Assembly: GCF_012940005.1 (NCBI RefSeq)
Contig: NZ_SPMX01000002.1
Coordinates: 1-64,000, forward strand
Reading direction: 5' to 3'
Length of the DNA: 64,000 nucleotides
Origin: Candidatus Accumulibacter contiguus
Lineage (GTDB): Bacteria > Pseudomonadota > Gammaproteobacteria > Burkholderiales > Rhodocyclaceae
A model generated the notes under the pieces. It did no database searches. It was given only the letters and a program-made list of their open reading frames with translations, and was not told where the DNA came from. Below are positions 4,453 to 12,138 of the stretch, piece after piece (position 1 is the first letter of the stretch; each line of letters opens with the position of its first letter). Both the position numbers and the translations under genes were made by a program.

Positions 4453-5349
4453 CTAGATTTGATAGGCTGGCACGCGATGGCACCAGCGATCCTTGTATTC
4501 ACGATCGGCGCGACCGAAGGAATAACGCAAGGGTTTGCCGAGCGCGCGCGCATCCTGCCAGGCGGCTTGCGTGTTGACGAAGCTGAGGACGCTGCCGGGG
4601 CTGAACTCTCTGCATTGCGGGTCTACACCGCCATTGATGTATTCGAGAGAAATCCACTGCGGGGCTTCGACGCGGTAGAGAATCTGGATGGCGATCGGCT
4701 GCGCGTTGCGCAACAGCACCGCGCCGGTCATGAATTCACGCAACAGCGTAAAGACTTCGCTCAAATGCGCAGCGCCACGCGCGGCAAAGCCCCAGCGGCG
4801 CTCGAACAAATCTGCGTAGATGGCGGCCTGCTCGGACGGCGAAAAATCGAGCATCGAACGAATGCTGCCCCCCGCTTCCTCGAGCAGACGCAATTCGCGG
4901 CGCTGGTTGTAGCGGAACTTCTTGCCGTAGTCTTCGGGTGGGCGCGCCAACGCCAGGCCCTGCGGCTGCGGCCGCAGCGTGCTGATGCGTGCGGCGTTCA
5001 GTTCGGAGACGTATGGCACTCGCAAACGCACCGGTACAGAGGCCTCGGCAGCGATCGGCAGGATGATCTCGGCATTGCCGAGATCGAACAGGCCGCGCTG
5101 CCCGCGCTTTTTGAGCACCACCTTGGACAGCGCCAGATAAGGCCCCCAGCAGGGAATCGCTGCCAGCAGTCGATCGCCGGCAAACCAGCCGAGGTAACGC
5201 ACCGGTATCGCCGCCAGCCCCGCCAGCCGCTCGACGACGAGCGGATGCGTGGCGACGCTGCCACCGTACTGTTGCCAGGCCTGCGCGTAGCTCGCCGCAT
5301 CGATCGGCGTCCAGCCACGCTCGCGCCAGGCGCGCAACAGCGTCAGCAC
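4453..5349 (-). CDS. Mig-14/FemAB-like GNAT-fold protein
   Basis: About 298 residues from a GTG at 5349; the frame is open to an ATG at 5421, but the extra 24 residues are arginine- and proline-rich and unlike the family. The body (ERGWTPID near the start, VATHPLVV, KFRYNQRRELRLLEEAGG, FADLFERRWGF-type core, and YKDRWCH near the end) resembles Mig-14, a GNAT-superfamily protein linked in enterobacteria to antimicrobial-peptide resistance. It probably transfers an acyl or aminoacyl group to a cell-envelope component; the substrate is unknown. The gene ends 47 bases before the PIG-L deacetylase start, so the two are likely one transcription unit. Function by family resemblance only. Confidence 0.68.
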   Translation of the reverse strand: MLTLLRAWRERGWTPIDAASYAQAWQQYGGSVATHPLVVERLAGLAAIPVRYLGWFAGDRLLAAIPCWGPYLALSKVVLKKRGQRGLFDLGNAEIILPIAAEASVPVRLRVPYVSELNAARISTLRPQPQGLALARPPEDYGKKFRYNQRRELRLLEEAGGSIRSMLDFSPSEQAAIYADLFERRWGFAARGAAHLSEVFTLLREFMTGAVLLRNAQPIAIQILYRVEAPQWISLEYINGGVDPQCREFSPGSVLSFVNTQAAWQDARALGKPLRYSFGRADREYKDRWCHRVPAYQI

Positions 5350-5522
5350 GGGTCTCTGCCGGCAGCACGCGGCGCGCGCACTGCGACCAGGCGGGTGGCG
5401 TGCCAGGACTCTGCGCTGCACGCCGGTGGCTCCTGCCCCATGCTCCGATTGATCCCCAACGACTCGTCAAAACAAGAATGTACCGCTTTTTCCATGAAAT
5501 CAGCTTAAAGGCATGCGCGACC

Positions 5523-6978: not shown

Positions 6979-7776
6979 CTATGGCTGCCGCTCGATCCAG
7001 GCTGCGATTCGCTCGGCCGCGGCTTCCCAGTGGGCGTCGAGCATCAGCGTGTGTCCGGCACGCGGAATCACCGCCACTTCGGCCTGCCAGTGCGCGGCAA
7101 TGAAGCCCAGCCCTGCCGGCGGAAACAGGGCGTCCGCTTCGCCGCCGACGACCAGCACCGGCAGCTTCGGCCGGCGCCGGCCGATGTGCATCGCCAACAG
7201 CGTCAGGTCGAGGATGGCACGACGGGATTCGGACTGGAACAATGGCGCAAAGCGGAGCAGATTCTCGGTGCAGGTCTCCGGCGAATAGTAGACGTCGCGA
7301 ATCGTCTGCAGCGTCTCCGGCGTGTACTCGCCGCGAGTCGCGCGCGCTTGCTGGTCGAAGAATGCAGGCTCGGTCAAGGCAATCTTCATCGTCGCGCCGA
7401 GAATGCCCGTCGGCGGGACCGGTGCCATCAGGACTGCAGCCTGCGCCTGCTGACGTTCGAGAAAGCGTTCGACGACGACGCTGCCCATCGAGTGCCCGAT
7501 CAGGATCGCCGGCACATCGAGTTTCCGGGTCACCTGGGCGAGGTCTTCGGCATAATCGTCGATGCCGAAAGAGTGCAGATGCTCGCGGCCCTCGCTGGCG
7601 CCGTGACCGGAGAGGTCGAGCGCGTAGCAGTCGAAACCGCGACGGCTGAACCAGGGCAGAAAGTACGCGTCCCAGCAGCCGGCCGTGGCATAGCCGCCAT
7701 GGACAAAAACGAGTGCTGGAAAACGCTTCGCGCCGACCGCCGGCCGGTGCAGAGTATGGATGCGGCGAATTTTCAT
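6979..7776 (-). CDS. Alpha/beta-hydrolase fold protein
   Basis: 265 residues from the ATG at 7776. The same frame is open far upstream, but that part is antisense to the CARF nuclease gene and is not protein-like. Motifs in order: oxyanion loop FVHGGYATAGCW, nucleophile elbow GHSMGS (Ser in GxSxG), acidic residue in VVGGEADALFPP, and catalytic His in RAGHTLML. This is the arrangement of lysophospholipase/monoglyceride-lipase-like hydrolases. Substrate unknown. The gene is divergent from the CARF nuclease, with 282 bases between the starts. Confidence 0.82.
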   Translation of the reverse strand: MKIRRIHTLHRPAVGAKRFPALVFVHGGYATAGCWDAYFLPWFSRRGFDCYALDLSGHGASEGREHLHSFGIDDYAEDLAQVTRKLDVPAILIGHSMGSVVVERFLERQQAQAAVLMAPVPPTGILGATMKIALTEPAFFDQQARATRGEYTPETLQTIRDVYYSPETCTENLLRFAPLFQSESRRAILDLTLLAMHIGRRRPKLPVLVVGGEADALFPPAGLGFIAAHWQAEVAVIPRAGHTLMLDAHWEAAAERIAAWIERQP

Positions 7777-8058
7777 GATCGATGGGAAAGTGGCACGGCG
7801 AGGCCTGCTGGCCGAATGCCGAAGGTTGGCAGTTGGATCGAGCGCTTTGGCAGCTTTGGATGCCAGACAGGAAGCTGACGATGGCAAGTATCGCAGGGTC
7901 TTGCCAGTGCAGGCAATCCCCATTTTCTCAATGGACGTTCGCTGTCGGCCTGGCATTCTGATCAACGCAGGCATGGAAGCGCTCCCACGCCATCTCCATC
8001 TCCATCTCCGGCGAACAGGCGCACAATGGCGATTGCTTACCGTCCACGGAAACATCAC

Positions 8059-9291
8059 ATGCAATTCCAGCCACGCATCCTCGTCTGTCTGGCCTCCGAG
8101 CAGATCATGCAGAACACCCTGCCCGCCCTGCGCCTGCGACCGGCGCAGGTGATCATCGCCGCCAGCGACTCCGAACCGGCGCTTCAGGGCGCGCTGCAGG
8201 TCAGCCGCGTCCTGCACGATGCCGGTTGGCCAGCGGATGCGGTACGCATCGTCGAGCACACGCCGGACCACGATCTCGGGAGCATCAGCCGCTACGCTCA
8301 GGATCTCGCCAGCGAGTTGCAGAACCAGCATCCGGGTCTGCCGATCGACCTCAATGCCAGCGGCGGTACCAAGGTGATGTCCTTCGGTTTTGTCGGTGCG
8401 CTCGCCGGACTGGGCGATGCCTGGTATTGCGATACCCGCCATGGTCTGCTCGAGCATCTGGGCGGCGGTGCGCCTTTGCTGCTGCCGGCCGACATGCTCA
8501 AGCTCGGCGAGGTGCTGCAGGTGCAGGGATATCGCGTCGTTGCCGACCCTACCTGGAACCCGACATTCGTGTGCGCCGCTGCCGCGCGCGCTGGTCTGAC
8601 CGAGCGCCTGGTCCGTGAGGCACCGCAACTCAACGGCTTTTTCGGCTACGTCAACCGGCTGACCCGCGAAGCCTTGCCGCAGAGCCGTACGGACGGCAGC
8701 ATTCTGCGCACTTTCCGTGACGAAATCCTCGCTCAGCGCCCGTTGTTCTCGAACAACCACGAACTGGCGCGAGCCTTTGAAGAGGCCGGCATCTGGGAGT
8801 GGGACGGCGATTGCCGCTTCCTCTTTGCCAGCGAGGCCAGCGCCAGGTATGCCGGAGGCGGCTGGCTCGAGGAATGGGCCTGGCTGACGCTGGCCGGGCT
8901 GCAGGCCGATGGCCTGATCCCCGACGGCCATTGGGGCACCAATCTGCGCGTCGATGCCGGACACGGCCTGCAGGAGGCAGCCAGCAACGAGCTCGATGCG
9001 GCACTGGTGTGGCGCAACCAGTTGCTGGTGCTCGAATGCAAGACCGGAGTGCAGATCAGCACCGAAGGCGGCAGTCAGTCGATCCTCAACCGCCTGGACA
9101 GCCTGCGTCGCCATGTCGGTGGCGCGATGGGCGAAACCTGGCTGCTCACCGCGCGGCGCTTGCAACAGGGCACCGGATCGGCGGCGCGGGAACGCGCGCG
9201 TGCCTACCGCATCCGCCTGATCGAGCCTGCACAGCTGGTCGATCTGCGGGCGGAAATCTGCGCCTGGATGGACATCGATATCGCTGCATAG
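8059..9291 (+). CDS. Card1/Can2-like CARF-domain nuclease (DUF1887 type), orphan
   Basis: 410 residues from the ATG at 8059 (GGAA upstream; an in-frame ATG at 8026 is less likely). The N-terminal half is a CARF-type ligand-binding domain with the signature DLNASGGTKVMSFG (residues 97-110), where cyclic oligoadenylate is read in this family. The C-terminal half has the PD-(D/E)xK nuclease signatures of DUF1887: GGWLEEWAW (E271/E272), then D313 in NELDAALV and E326-C-K328 in LVLECKTG, so the active site looks complete. Card1 and Can2 are type III CRISPR ancillary nucleases that cut DNA and/or RNA when cyclic tetra-adenylate binds. No cas gene or repeat array occurs in the window; instead the next genes are hsp20 and lon, 65 bases downstream. 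Ligand and target are inferred from the family. Confidence 0.85.
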   Translation: MQFQPRILVCLASEQIMQNTLPALRLRPAQVIIAASDSEPALQGALQVSRVLHDAGWPADAVRIVEHTPDHDLGSISRYAQDLASELQNQHPGLPIDLNASGGTKVMSFGFVGALAGLGDAWYCDTRHGLLEHLGGGAPLLLPADMLKLGEVLQVQGYRVVADPTWNPTFVCAAAARAGLTERLVREAPQLNGFFGYVNRLTREALPQSRTDGSILRTFRDEILAQRPLFSNNHELARAFEEAGIWEWDGDCRFLFASEASARYAGGGWLEEWAWLTLAGLQADGLIPDGHWGTNLRVDAGHGLQEAASNELDAALVWRNQLLVLECKTGVQISTEGGSQSILNRLDSLRRHVGGAMGETWLLTARRLQQGTGSAARERARAYRIRLIEPAQLVDLRAEICAWMDIDIAA

Positions 9292-9356: not shown

Positions 9357-9776
9357 ATGAGAGCCGATGATCGAAGGTTATGGATGTGGGCGGAGGCACT
9401 CGATCTGCTGCAGGGCGGAGAGCGATTGCAGCGCCGCTTTCTTGCCCTGGAGAGCCTGCAGTCGGTGCCCTGCTGGGAACCATCGGTCGATCTGTACGAG
9501 AACGGCGACGAACTGAGACTGCTGGTGGCTCTGCCTGGCGTCCATTTCCGGCAGGTCGAAGTCGTCCTCGATGAAGCTGGCCTGGTCGTACGTGGTACGC
9601 GCCCGATACCACAGGCTTTGCGTCGGGCAACGATCCACCGCCTGGAGATTCCCTATGGGCGCTTCGAGCGCTGGATAGCGCTGCCGCCAGGAAACTACCA
9701 GCTGCACGAGCAGTTCCTGGAGGACGGCTGCCTGGTGTTGGTGCTGCGCCACCTGCGAGACGAAAATGCGATCTGA
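9357..9776 (+). CDS. Hsp20/alpha-crystallin small heat-shock protein
   Basis: 139 residues containing one alpha-crystallin domain: PSVDLYENGDELRLLVALPG opens it, followed by the beta-sandwich core (VEVVLDEAGLVVRG) and the A-x-x-x-n-x-L-like closing strand (EDGCLVLVLRHL). It lacks the C-terminal IxI tail common in oligomeric small heat-shock proteins, so assembly may be different. It should hold unfolded clients in the cytoplasm. Its end overlaps the lon start by 11 bases, implying coupled translation and a chaperone-protease partnership. The start ATG at 9357 has AGGGA upstream. Confidence 0.88.
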   Translation: MRADDRRLWMWAEALDLLQGGERLQRRFLALESLQSVPCWEPSVDLYENGDELRLLVALPGVHFRQVEVVLDEAGLVVRGTRPIPQALRRATIHRLEIPYGRFERWIALPPGNYQLHEQFLEDGCLVLVLRHLRDENAI

Positions 9777-12138
9777 CCGGACAGACGCGAGTCGCAACGC
9801 ACTCGCGACCGGCGCTGGCGTCCTGGTGATCCCGGACGACGCGATGGTCATCGTTCCGGTACGCAACGTGCTGCTTTTTCCCGGCATGATCCTGCCGCTC
9901 ACCATCAGCCGCGAACAGTCGATGCTGGCAGCGCAGCAGGCGGTCAAGACCGAGCGCCCGGTCGGTGTTCTCCTGCAGCGGGATGCCGAGGTCGAAGTGC
10001 CGGGACCGGATGATCTTTGCCTGGTCGGTACGGTGGCCAACATCCTGCGTTATGTGACCCTGCCGGATAACACGCATGTCATCGTCTGCCAGGGGCTGCA
10101 GCGATTCCGCGTCGTCGAGTACCTGCCAGGCTATCCTTTCCCGGTGGCGCGTGTCGGGCGGATGGATGAACCCGACGCGACAGACAGCCAGATCGAAGCG
10201 CGCATGATCCAGCTCAGGGAACGCGCGCTCGAAGTCCTGCAGTTTCTGCCGCAGGTCTCACAGGAACTGGTCGGTGCGGTCAAGAGCATTACCCAGGCGG
10301 GGGCTCTGGCCGACCTGGTGGCGAGCGTCGCGGAACTGAAAATTGCCGATCGGCAGAGGGTCCTGGAAAGCATTGATCTGCAGCGGCGGCTCGACATCGT
10401 TCTCGATTGCCTGCTCGCGCGCCTGGAAGTGCTGCGACTTTCACGCGAACTCGACGAGCGTACCAAGGCGAACATCGATCAGCGTCAGCGCGAATACCTG
10501 CTGCGCGAGCAGTTGAAGTCGATCCAGAAGGAACTCGGTGAAGGGGAAACCGGCAACAGCGTCGAGATCGAGGCGCTGCGCAAAGCCATCGCCGAAGCCC
10601 AGATGCCCGAGGAGGTGGCAAGTCAGGCAAACAAGGAGCTGCAGCGCCTGGCGCGCATGTCGGACGCTTCGGCGGAGTACTCGATGGTGCGTGCCTATCT
10701 CGACTGGCTGATCGAGTTGCCATGGCGGGCACCCGAGCCGGATCGGATCGAGATTGCCGAAGCCCGTCAAATCCTCGACGCCGATCATTTCGGCCTCGAC
10801 CAGGTCAAGAAGCGTATCGTCGAGTTTCTCGCGGTGCGCAAGCTCAACCCGAGCGGGCACGGACCCATTCTGTGCTTTGTCGGCCCGCCCGGAGTTGGCA
10901 AGACCTCGCTTGGCCAGTCGATCGCCAGAGCGCTGGGACGAAAGTTCGTGCGCGCATCGCTCGGCGGCGTCCACGATGAAGCCGAAATCCGCGGCCACCG
11001 GCGCACCTACATCGGCGCCCTGCCCGGCAACATCATTCAGGCGATCCGCAAGGCCGGATCGCGAGGCTGTGTGATGATGCTCGACGAGATTGACAAGCTC
11101 GGTGCCGGTATTCAGGGTGACCCTTCGGCCGCCCTGCTCGAAGTGCTCGATCCGGAGCAGAACAATACCTTCCGCGACAACTATCTGGCCTTGCCGTTCG
11201 ACTTGTCCCGGATGCTGTTCATCACCACCGCGAATGTGCTGGACAACATTCCGGGGCCACTGCGTGACCGCATGGAGATCATCCAGTTGCCCGGCTACAC
11301 ACAGGAGGAAAAGCGGGAGATCGCCCGGCGTTATCTCGTCGGACGTCAGATTACCCAGAATGGCCTCCAGGAAGGTCAGATCGAGTTTTCGGAACAGGCA
11401 CTCGTGGCGATCATCCGCGATTACACGCGCGAAGCCGGCGTGCGCTCGCTCGAGCGGGAAATTGGCGCGGTGTGCCGACGCGCCGCGGTGAACATTGCCG
11501 AGGGCAAGATGCCGTCGATGCGGGTCGATGAGGGCGATCTCGCCAGCATACTCGGTCCAGGCAAGTACGATAACGAAGTCGCCTTGCGCACCGGTCTTGC
11601 CGGAGTGGCCACCGGGCTGGCGTGGACGCCGGTCGGTGGCGACATTCTGTTCATTGAAGCCAGCCGTACGGCGGGTGACGGCAAGTTGATCCTCACCGGG
11701 CAACTCGGGGAGGTGATGAAGGAATCCGCACAGGCAGCGCTGACCCTGGTGAAAACGCGTGCAGCAGACCTCGGCATCGATGCCGGCAGCTTCGAGAAAA
11801 GCAACGTACATGTGCATGTGCCGGCGGGGGCGATCCCCAAGGATGGTCCGAGTGCGGGCGTGGCGATGTTCATCGCGCTGGCCTCGCTGTTTGTCGACCG
11901 CCCGGTCCGCAACGATACCGCGATGACTGGCGAGATCAGCCTGCGGGGACTCGTTCTGCCAGTGGGCGGAATCAAGGACAAGGTGCTCGCCGCCATGCGC
12001 GCCGGGATTCAGCGGGTGCTGTTGCCGGCAAGGAACCGCAGGGATCTCGATGAAGTGCCGCAGGAGGCGAAGGAGCGACTCGAATTCATCTTCCTGGAAA
12101 ATGTGGACGATGCGGTCCGGCATGCCATGCGGCAATGA
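9766..12138 (+). CDS. lon: ATP-dependent Lon protease
   Basis: 790 residues, full length for a bacterial LonA. The N-terminal substrate-binding domain begins at VIVPVRNVLLFPGMILPL; a coiled region precedes the AAA+ module with Walker A GPPGVGKT (373-380) and Walker B MMLDEIDKL; the C-terminal serine protease domain has Ser696 in KDGPSAGVAM and Lys739 in GGIKDKVLAA, 43 residues apart as in E. coli Lon. It degrades misfolded and regulatory proteins in the cytoplasm. Overlap with hsp20 by 11 bases suggests a dedicated pair. Many betaproteobacteria carry a second lon linked to clpX; whether this is the only copy cannot be told here. No sigma32-like promoter was evident upstream. Confidence 0.95.
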   Translation: MRSDRTDASRNALATGAGVLVIPDDAMVIVPVRNVLLFPGMILPLTISREQSMLAAQQAVKTERPVGVLLQRDAEVEVPGPDDLCLVGTVANILRYVTLPDNTHVIVCQGLQRFRVVEYLPGYPFPVARVGRMDEPDATDSQIEARMIQLRERALEVLQFLPQVSQELVGAVKSITQAGALADLVASVAELKIADRQRVLESIDLQRRLDIVLDCLLARLEVLRLSRELDERTKANIDQRQREYLLREQLKSIQKELGEGETGNSVEIEALRKAIAEAQMPEEVASQANKELQRLARMSDASAEYSMVRAYLDWLIELPWRAPEPDRIEIAEARQILDADHFGLDQVKKRIVEFLAVRKLNPSGHGPILCFVGPPGVGKTSLGQSIARALGRKFVRASLGGVHDEAEIRGHRRTYIGALPGNIIQAIRKAGSRGCVMMLDEIDKLGAGIQGDPSAALLEVLDPEQNNTFRDNYLALPFDLSRMLFITTANVLDNIPGPLRDRMEIIQLPGYTQEEKREIARRYLVGRQITQNGLQEGQIEFSEQALVAIIRDYTREAGVRSLEREIGAVCRRAAVNIAEGKMPSMRVDEGDLASILGPGKYDNEVALRTGLAGVATGLAWTPVGGDILFIEASRTAGDGKLILTGQLGEVMKESAQAALTLVKTRAADLGIDAGSFEKSNVHVHVPAGAIPKDGPSAGVAMFIALASLFVDRPVRNDTAMTGEISLRGLVLPVGGIKDKVLAAMRAGIQRVLLPARNRRDLDEVPQEAKERLEFIFLENVDDAVRHAMRQ

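What the first reader, a model, noticed from the sequence alone, without database searches (positions are those of the whole stretch)
8059..9291. Orphan Card1/Can2-like CARF nuclease with an intact active site
A cyclic-oligoadenylate-sensing nuclease normally guards type III CRISPR loci. Here no cas gene or array lies within 8 kb to the left or 55 kb to the right. It could be served in trans by a distant type III system, or respond to a different nucleotide signal in a CRISPR-independent defence or stress circuit.
Basis: partly seen in the sequence, partly recalled or inferred. Interest (0 to 1): 0.72.

Follow-up and report, generated by a model that had tools for sequence, protein, structure and literature searches.

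The report
Stand-alone CRISPR-signal-sensing nuclease in Accumulibacter
A nuclease that looks built to switch on when it senses a CRISPR alarm molecule sits on its own in the chromosome of wastewater bacteria (Accumulibacter), away from CRISPR genes and in some species with no matching CRISPR system found, which makes it a good test case for alarm signalling between distant genes.

Summary
ORF 8059-9291 (410 aa) is a CARF plus PD-(D/E)xK nuclease of the Can2/Card1 family (Pfam 1.9e-21; PADLOC CARF4 9e-81; AlphaFold2 pLDDT 91.8, nearest folds VC1899 and cA4-bound Can2). No cas gene was found in the window, but the same genome has a type III-B locus with a GGDD Cas10 on another contig; in a single-contig sister genome nuclease and cas10 lie 1.95 Mb apart. 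The hsp20-lon neighbourhood is peculiar to this genome. The gene occurs in 14 of 28 Accumulibacter genomes, apparently by vertical descent. Among 79 relatives fetched, type III markers lie beside 1 of 12 orthologues but 59 of 67 others. Unlike the published orphan VC1899, 12 of 14 copies keep the cA4-contacting residues of Can2 (S13, S36, K105, Y123), and all 14 keep the nuclease residues. Four of 14 carriers, one rated 100% complete, have no type III found; dN/dS among three of them is 0.075-0.096. Carriage and Cas10 are not significantly associated. Best reading: a former type III effector, now a resident stand-alone cA4-activated nuclease used in trans. Orphan CARF proteins are known; a genus-wide, pocket-intact one under selection is the new part.

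The parts
8059..9291 (+). stand-alone CARF-PD-(D/E)xK nuclease gene (Can2/Card1 family), 410 aa; alternative in-frame ATG at 8026
8074..8538 (+). CARF (ligand-sensing) domain, about residues 6-160; cA4-pocket residues S13, S36, K105, Y123 (Can2 Ser19, Thr42, Lys99, Tyr118)
   Evidence: contact list read in PMC7969007 sections 21-22
8833..9270 (+). PD-(D/E)xK nuclease domain, residues 259-404; active-site residues E311, D313, E326, K328
6979..7776 (-). alpha/beta-hydrolase gene, divergent neighbour; within about 2.1 kb of the nuclease in 10 of 14 carriers
9357..9776 (+). small Hsp20-like ORF (by eye; no Pfam hit at 1e-5); adjacent in this genome only, not part of the unit
9766..12138 (+). second Lon protease gene; adjacent in this genome only, not part of the unit

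Best explanation
It is a Can2/Card1-type type III CRISPR effector that became uncoupled from its CRISPR locus in an ancestor of Candidatus Accumulibacter and is now a resident chromosomal gene. Two subunits most likely form a CARF dimer that binds cyclic tetra-adenylate (cA4) made in trans by the Cas10 of whichever type III system the cell carries; in this genome that is the Cmr-type locus on contig C117. Binding would open the PD-(D/E)xK nuclease, which then cuts RNA and/or nicks or degrades DNA non-specifically to stall infection. Shown by computation: family, predicted fold, pocket and active-site residues, purifying selection, uncoupling from type III loci, and a GGDD Cas10 in the same genome. 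Inferred: dimerisation, cA4 binding, nuclease activity, service in trans.
For: Family and fold: (Foldseek ranks 1-2: VC1899 1xmx 9.5e-26; Can2-cA4 7bdv 1.7e-24). Pocket: Can2 contacts Ser19/Thr42/Lys99/Tyr118 are S13/S36/K105/Y123 here. In A2 (12 orphans, 62 others): K105 74 of 74; Y123 73 of 74 (one F, an orphan); position 13 S or T in 72 of 74 (2 gaps); position 36 S in 12 of 12 orphans and S or T in 58 of 62 others. cOA source: own Cas10 has GGDD and scores as Cas10/Cas10b; 10 of 14 carriers have Cas10 and RAMPs. In single-contig genome G010 nuclease and cas10 are 1.95 Mb apart. Origin: the orphan clade is one side of a branch (SH-aLRT 100, quick tree) among mostly type III-linked relatives; type III markers lie beside 59 of 67 other relatives against 1 of 12 orphans (79 loci, the best 80 of 148 confirmed relatives). 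Selection: dN/dS 0.075-0.243 over the 14 pairs computed.
Against: Carriage of the nuclease is not significantly associated with Cas10 (10 of 14 against 7 of 14, Fisher p 0.44). In tree-aware pairs Cas10 goes the same way in 2.5 and the other way in 0.2 of 4 pairs on average, too few to test. Four carriers (G001, G002, G009, G012) have no Cas10, RAMP or NE0113-type CARF found, yet keep the gene. One of them, G002, has T13 and F123, the only carrier to lose the Tyr hydroxyl. In 15 of the 17 type III-bearing genomes the locus carries its own Csx2-type CARF protein (CARF-HEPN by PADLOC tested in G000 and G010 only), so an extra effector is not obviously needed. No biochemistry could be done.
Confidence: 0.62

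Rival explanations
1. The nuclease has been re-wired to a signal not made by type III CRISPR: a CBASS-type or metabolic nucleotide, or an RNA-damage product. It works in type III-free cells as a stand-alone defence or stress nuclease.
For: Four of 14 carriers have no detectable type III, among them G001 (rated 100% complete). G001/G009/G012 form a supported SecA clade (99/96) with pairwise dN/dS 0.075-0.096. The orphan clade sits on a long stem, 1.13 changes per column. RtcR shows a CARF used outside CRISPR, bound directly by RtcAB (start of abstract of PMC9650030, listing).
Against: The cA4-contacting residues are kept in 12 of 14 copies. SMODS cyclases are over cut-off in only 5 of 28 genomes and not in G001, G002 or G012. 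mCpol is over cut-off in 0 of 150 genomes. No conserved operon partner was seen apart from a divergent alpha/beta-hydrolase. In the nuclease tree G015 and G022, which have type III, fall inside the G001/G009/G012 group (88/83), so the type III-free clade rests on SecA.
Confidence: 0.18
2. A sub-case of the best explanation (same mechanism, so the odds overlap): in type III-free species the gene is idle, kept because type III loci come and go faster than it is lost, or because the type III locus sits on plasmids or islands that metagenome binning dropped. It is a waiting effector.
For: On the SecA tree Cas10 needs at least 8 changes of state and the nuclease 7 (bootstrap 6-7; 4 forced by starred branches). 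Csm-like and Cmr-like type III loci both occur in the genus. 10 of the 12 orthologue record titles say MAG; completeness scores do not measure accessory DNA.
Against: dN/dS among the three type III-free species is as low as elsewhere. No NE0113-type CARF is left in the four genomes. The CRISPR repeat probed is absent too, but that is weak: it also misses 3 of 17 type III-bearing genomes (G018, G020, G023).
Confidence: 0.3
3. It is a degenerating or exapted relic like VC1899, no longer regulated by cOA.
For: VC1899 is a published orphan of the same family with weak RNase activity not regulated by cA4 (PMC7969007). The G015 copy lacks residues 1-26 beside a DDE transposase gene. G007 has Ser in place of G102 of the GGTK motif; G002 has T13 and F123.
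Against: VC1899 has Asp9, Asp34, Arg96 and Val115 at the four positions and lacks the GGTK motif; 12 of 14 copies here have S13, S36, K105 and Y123, and 14 of 14 have E311, D313, E326 and K328. dN/dS is 0.075-0.243.
Confidence: 0.1
4. The gene belongs to a stress operon with hsp20 and lon.
For: Same strand, 65 bp from the nuclease stop to the next ORF in this window.
Against: Only 1 of 14 carriers has this arrangement. Six carriers (G002, G004, G007, G011, G015, G022) showed only one lon, of the 46% type, in the search of G000-G024. The second lon lies near secA in seven other genomes.
Confidence: 0.02

Closest known systems
Can2 of Sulfobacillus thermosulfidooxidans (PDB 7bdv) and Card1 (6wxw, 6xl1; host Treponema succinifaciens recalled)
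   Same: CARF + PD-(D/E)xK architecture, fold (Foldseek 1.7e-24 and 6.3e-20), GGTK motif, cA4-contact residues of Can2, E/D/E/K active site
   Different: Those are described as type III-associated effectors (Can2: PMC7969007 passages); this one is stand-alone, and about 19% identical to Can2 in the fold alignment
VC1899 of Vibrio cholerae (PDB 1xmx), the published orphan of the family
   Same: Best PDB fold match (9.5e-26), not linked to type III, conserved nuclease domain
   Different: VC1899 lost the cA4 pocket and is not cA4-regulated; here the pocket is retained in 12 of 14 copies
In-locus Card1-like protein of Accumulibacter G018/G023 (L177, L178) and Dechloromonas (L176)
   Same: Among the nearest relatives in the tree, 34-36% identical, same active site
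   Different: Encoded inside type III loci with cas10, RAMP and cas6 genes
Orphan Csx15 (PMC13148439)
   Same: A CARF-like type III accessory protein, about 25% of whose genes are reported as orphans; the orphan PfCsx15 sequesters cA4 (passages)
   Different: Csx15 is a ring nuclease or cA4 sponge, not a nucleic-acid nuclease
Daci_4198 (VC1899 family) of Delftia acidovorans
   Same: CARF gene of this Pfam family reported as not linked to CRISPR-Cas (PMC4012209 passage)
   Different: Embedded in a proposed type VII secretion/ter cluster; none was recognised in the ten window neighbours scanned here

Membership tests
Can2/Card1 (CARF4, DUF1887) family | N-terminal CARF domain with N-x-[TS]-G-G-[TN]-K-x-M motif | tested here: met
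   NASGGTKVM, residues 99-107; PADLOC CARF4 full length 9e-81; A1/A2. The Pfam CARF_Card1 model alone is sub-threshold
Can2/Card1 (CARF4, DUF1887) family | C-terminal PD-(D/E)xK nuclease with E/D ... E-x-K | tested here: met
   E311, D313, E326, K328, each in at least 73 of 74 rows; PF09002 1.9e-21
Can2/Card1 (CARF4, DUF1887) family | overall fold of Can2/Card1 | tested here: met
   AF2 pLDDT 91.8, pTM 0.89; Foldseek to 7bdv E 1.7e-24, TM 0.72/0.83
Can2/Card1 (CARF4, DUF1887) family | cA4-contact residues of Can2 (Ser19, Thr42, Lys99, Tyr118) | tested here: met
   S13, S36, K105, Y123 in the window protein (list)
type III CRISPR effector (in-locus) | encoded in or beside a type III locus | tested here: not met
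   No cas gene in the window or the next 20 kb; 1 of 12 orthologue loci has cas1/cas2/arrays nearby
type III CRISPR effector (served in trans) | a cyclase-competent Cas10 in the same genome | tested here: met
   Own genome: Cas10 with GGDD on C117. Across the genus 10 of 14 carriers have Cas10; 4 do not
Can2/Card1 (CARF4, DUF1887) family | homodimer activated by cA4; DNase/RNase activity | not testable with these tools
   needs purified protein; no multimer prediction was run
CBASS effector | linked or co-occurring CD-NTase | tested here: not met
   SMODS over cut-off in 5 of 28 genomes; own genome only 21.7 bits (cut-off 26.5); no match in G001, G002, G012. Other CD-NTase families not searched
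mCpol/Panoptes-type system (system name recalled) | mCpol cyclase | tested here: not met
   PF18182 over cut-off in 0 of 150 genomes

The most novel reading that the evidence does not exclude
A type III effector has become a vertically inherited, selected, pocket-intact stand-alone cOA receptor in a whole genus, and in at least one clade (G001/G009/G012) it functions without any resident type III system, answering a cA4-like signal from an unknown source.
Probability: 0.2. Interest if true: 0.78.

Novelty: new variant of a known kind. Interest (0 to 1): 0.5.

Why it matters
[quoted passage not shown] Here effector and cyclase are clearly separated (1.95 Mb in a single-contig genome), the receptor pocket is intact, and species with the receptor but no detected cyclase are on hand for comparison. 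It contrasts with the known orphan VC1899, which lost cA4 control. If the type III-free copies prove functional, a new source of cOA-like signal in bacteria would have to exist.

Tried and rejected
Hsp20-lon synteny: rejected, found in 1 of 14 carriers. The second lon lies within about 10 kb of secA in seven other genomes (G001, G005, G014, G016, G017, G018, G023), so this genome's arrangement looks like a rearrangement.

A type III locus just off the left end of the contig: not seen. The only type III locus found in the genome is on C117. C117's right end carries a CRISPR repeat also found within 160 bases of the end of C76, so C117 probably continues into C76. A junction of C117's left end with C52's left end is not excluded but would still leave more than 20 kb between cas10 and the nuclease.

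CBASS (SMODS) and mCpol as the signal source: no tracking.

Mobile element: no phage record hit, one plasmid hit at 24% identity. The gene tree repeats the main SecA clades, except that G015 and G022 fall with G009 and G012 (88/83) while SecA joins G001, G009 and G012 (99/96).

Association of nuclease and Cas10 across species: tested, not significant.

PF22335 also matches weakly in many genomes (104 of 150 at 1e-3, 59 of 150 over cut-off). Within the genus I counted only hits of about 60 bits or more as Cas10. The 11 genomes counted as negative had at most about 26 bits, except G008 (27.7 with neighbouring pieces, cut-off 27; not a carrier). That the weak hits are GGDEF-type cyclases is my inference. 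RAMP hits gave the same 17 of 28 genomes.

Rows dropped: 5 of 79 loci (L191, L197, L222, L232, L237: short, or a stop in frame) were left out of the family set. L174 (truncated copy) was also left out of A2 but kept in the tree. The SecA rows of G003, G012 and G027 are partial. The lon search covered G000-G024 of the genus only.

Full report
WHAT IS THERE. The ORF at 8059-9291 encodes 410 aa. Its C-terminal part matches Pfam Card1_endonuc (1.9e-21). The Pfam CARF_Card1 model is only suggestive (0.026, below its cut-off), but PADLOC's CARF4--CARF_PDDEXK model covers the whole protein at 9e-81. NCBIfam gives nothing. An AlphaFold2 model built from 74 sequences has mean pLDDT 91.8 and pTM 0.89. 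Foldseek ranks VC1899 (1xmx, 9.5e-26) and cA4-bound Can2 (7bdv, 1.7e-24) first, with Cdn1 and Card1 following. It is a Can2/Card1-family protein by sequence and predicted fold.

IS IT ORPHAN? HMMs that I built from Accumulibacter cas10, RAMP, cas1, cas2, cas6, Csx2 and NE0113 genes found nothing at 1e-5 in the 64 kb window or the next 20 kb of the contig. Whole-genome searches put Cas10 over cut-off only on contig C117 and RAMPs likewise. That contig carries a Cmr-type locus: a Cas10 with GGDD, Cmr1/3/4/6-like genes, Cas6, a Csx2-type CARF-HEPN and NE0113-type CARF proteins (Cmr names recalled or by similarity). So the gene is an orphan by locus, not by genome.

GENUS. Contigs of the same-genus genomes match, by length and sequence, public records named Candidatus Accumulibacter (for example G001 A. 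regalis, G009 A. appositus, G012 A. adiacens). Of 28 genomes of the genus held (G000-G027), 14 carry the gene, own included, the other 13 at 75-92% identity. In the single-contig genome G010 the nuclease is at 1.18 Mb and cas10 at 3.13 Mb. In G011 the nuclease lies about 2.7 kb from cas1-cas2 and near CRISPR arrays, the only such case among the 12 orthologue loci tested. The most frequent neighbour is a divergent alpha/beta-hydrolase, within about 2.1 kb in 10 of 14 carriers. In five carriers the gene sits upstream of a run that reads as thrS-infC-rpmI-rplT-pheST (names by eye; in G012 only the first two before the contig ends). Hsp20-lon adjoins it in this genome alone. The lon is a second copy, found within about 10 kb of secA in seven other genomes.

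ORIGIN. A scan of the genome collection with the alignment confirmed 148 relatives, of which the best 80 were kept as 79 loci. Outside the orphan group, 59 of 67 loci carry cas10, RAMP, cas1 or cas6 (40 bits or more) within the stretch held, up to 10 kb each side. Counting NE0113, Csx2 and cas2 at 25 bits or more it is 64 of 67. The orphan group has 1 of 12 by either count (Fisher 9e-8 and 5e-10). Cas10 itself: 36 of 67 against 0 of 12. Of the eight without a strong marker (L187, L192, L195, L209, L215, L224, L226, L241), three are contigs of about 3-4 kb; L226 is a full 21 kb stretch with nothing, so unlinked relatives exist elsewhere too. In the quick tree the orphan rows form one side of a branch with SH-aLRT 100 and a stem of 1.13; their neighbours L176-L179 and L184 are type III-linked (L179 and L184, short contigs, by cas6 alone). 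Within the genus the nuclease tree repeats the main SecA clades ({G002,G007}, {G004,G013}, {G000,G010,G026}, G011 with the G001/G009/G012/G015/G022 group). It differs inside the last group, where G015 and G022 fall with G009 and G012 (88/83) while SecA joins G001, G009 and G012 (99/96). Presence needs 7 changes on the SecA tree (bootstrap 6-7, 4 forced by starred branches). I read this as one uncoupling, vertical inheritance and repeated loss; the count cannot tell gain from loss.

POCKET. For SthCan2 the paper lists side-chain contacts Ser19, Asp20, Thr42, Lys99, Tyr118 and Ser121, of which Ser19, Thr42, Lys99 and Tyr118 are shared with Can1. In the orphan VC1899 these four are Asp9, Asp34, Arg96 and Val115, and VC1899 is not cA4-regulated (PMC7969007: passages; sections 21 and 22 in full). 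Aligned residues here are S13, E14, S36, K105, Y123 and T126. In A2, K105 is in 74 of 74, Y123 in 73 of 74 (F in orphan L165), and position 13 is S or T in 72 of 74 with two gaps. Position 36 is S in 12 of 12 orphans and, among 62 others, S or T in 58, R and N once each, gap twice. Of the 14 genus copies, 12 have all of S13, S36, K105 and Y123; all 14 have E311, D313, E326 and K328. Departures: G002 has T13 and F123, and is one of the type III-free genomes; G007 has S102; G015 lacks residues 1-26 beside a DDE transposase gene.

SIGNAL SOURCE. Cas10 (hits of about 60 bits or more) and RAMPs agree on 17 of 28 genomes. Of the 19 Cas10 ORFs I called in these loci, 17 show GGDD; G026's Cas10 is cut by a contig end. 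Ten of 14 carriers have type III and four do not: G001 (100% complete), G002 (87%), G009 (93%), G012 (88%). Those four also lack NE0113-type CARF and the probed CRISPR repeat, though the repeat probe also misses three type III-bearing genomes. Nuclease and Cas10 are not significantly associated (10 of 14 against 7 of 14, Fisher p 0.44; in tree-aware pairs the direction agrees in 2.5 and disagrees in 0.2 of 4, too few to test). CBASS SMODS cyclases are over cut-off in 5 of 28 genomes: three carriers (G009, G013, G015) and two non-carriers. mCpol is over cut-off in 0 of 150. In 15 of 17 type III-bearing genomes the locus has its own Csx2-type CARF gene. dN/dS is as low without type III (G001-G009 0.082, G001-G012 0.075, G009-G012 0.096) as with it (G022-G015 0.087, G000-G010 0.107); the 14 pairs computed span 0.075-0.243 (NG86, no correction for codon bias).

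HOW IT MOST LIKELY WORKS. By analogy with Can2: a CARF dimer binds cA4 and opens the nuclease, which degrades RNA and/or nicks DNA. In this cell the cA4 would come from the type III-B locus on C117. Those steps are inferred. What happens in the four type III-free genomes is open: a waiting effector for type III loci that come and go, type III on DNA lost in binning, or another signal.

PRIOR ART. Members of each CARF family not linked to CRISPR, this one included, were noted in 2014 (PMC4012209, passages). VC1899 is the studied orphan. About a quarter of csx15 genes in one data set are orphans (PMC13148439, passages). Signalling between loci is posed as a question in PMC11229360 (passages). 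PMC12669027 was seen in passages only. A 2025 study of 136 Accumulibacter MAGs surveys defence systems, but its main text has no occurrence of 'CARF' or 'type III' (PMC12766714, find). In my searches, read as listings, I saw no description of this gene. The library holds only open-licence papers, and the 2020 CARF classification (PMC7498327) was not held.

VERDICT. A real Can2/Card1-family nuclease and a well-supported case of a type III effector uncoupled from its locus in one genus, with pocket and active site intact.

Noticed in passing
L076 (G015:C87), nuclease start: The A. phosphatis SBR_S copy has lost residues 1-26 (CARF strand 1 with S13) beside a DDE transposase gene, in a genome that has a type III locus.
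   Followed up: partly
L287 (G016:C1:2957000-2976900), about 9561-11774: A single-contig genome without Cas10 keeps an NE0113-type CARF gene followed by a piece matching my Csx2 and cas2 models: a second decoupled CARF or a type III remnant.
   Followed up: partly
L149 (G010:C1:3119000-3138900): The Csm-type locus of G010 has a GGDD Cas10, but the probed repeat occurs once in the whole genome, so its guide source is unclear.
   Followed up: no
window 9766-12138: A second lon gene, about 47% identical to the lon on C53; in seven other genomes of the genus it lies within about 10 kb of secA.
   Followed up: partly
type III loci of the genus (L059/L060, L072, L077, L078, L146-L163): In 15 of 17 type III-bearing genomes a locus pairs an NE0113-type CARF protein with a Csx2-type CARF protein, whether the complex is Csm- or Cmr-like; G000 also has an ADP-ribosylglycohydrolase-like gene between two NE0113-type genes (name by eye).
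   Followed up: no
L226 (Kiritimatiellae, 21 kb) and L195 (Desulfobotulus, 15 kb): Two distant relatives with no type III marker in the stretch held: further unlinked Can2-like genes outside Accumulibacter.
   Followed up: no
window 4453-5421: A Mig-14 family protein (PF07395, 4.9e-116) lies in the block left of the nuclease that is shared with G010 and G026.
   Followed up: no
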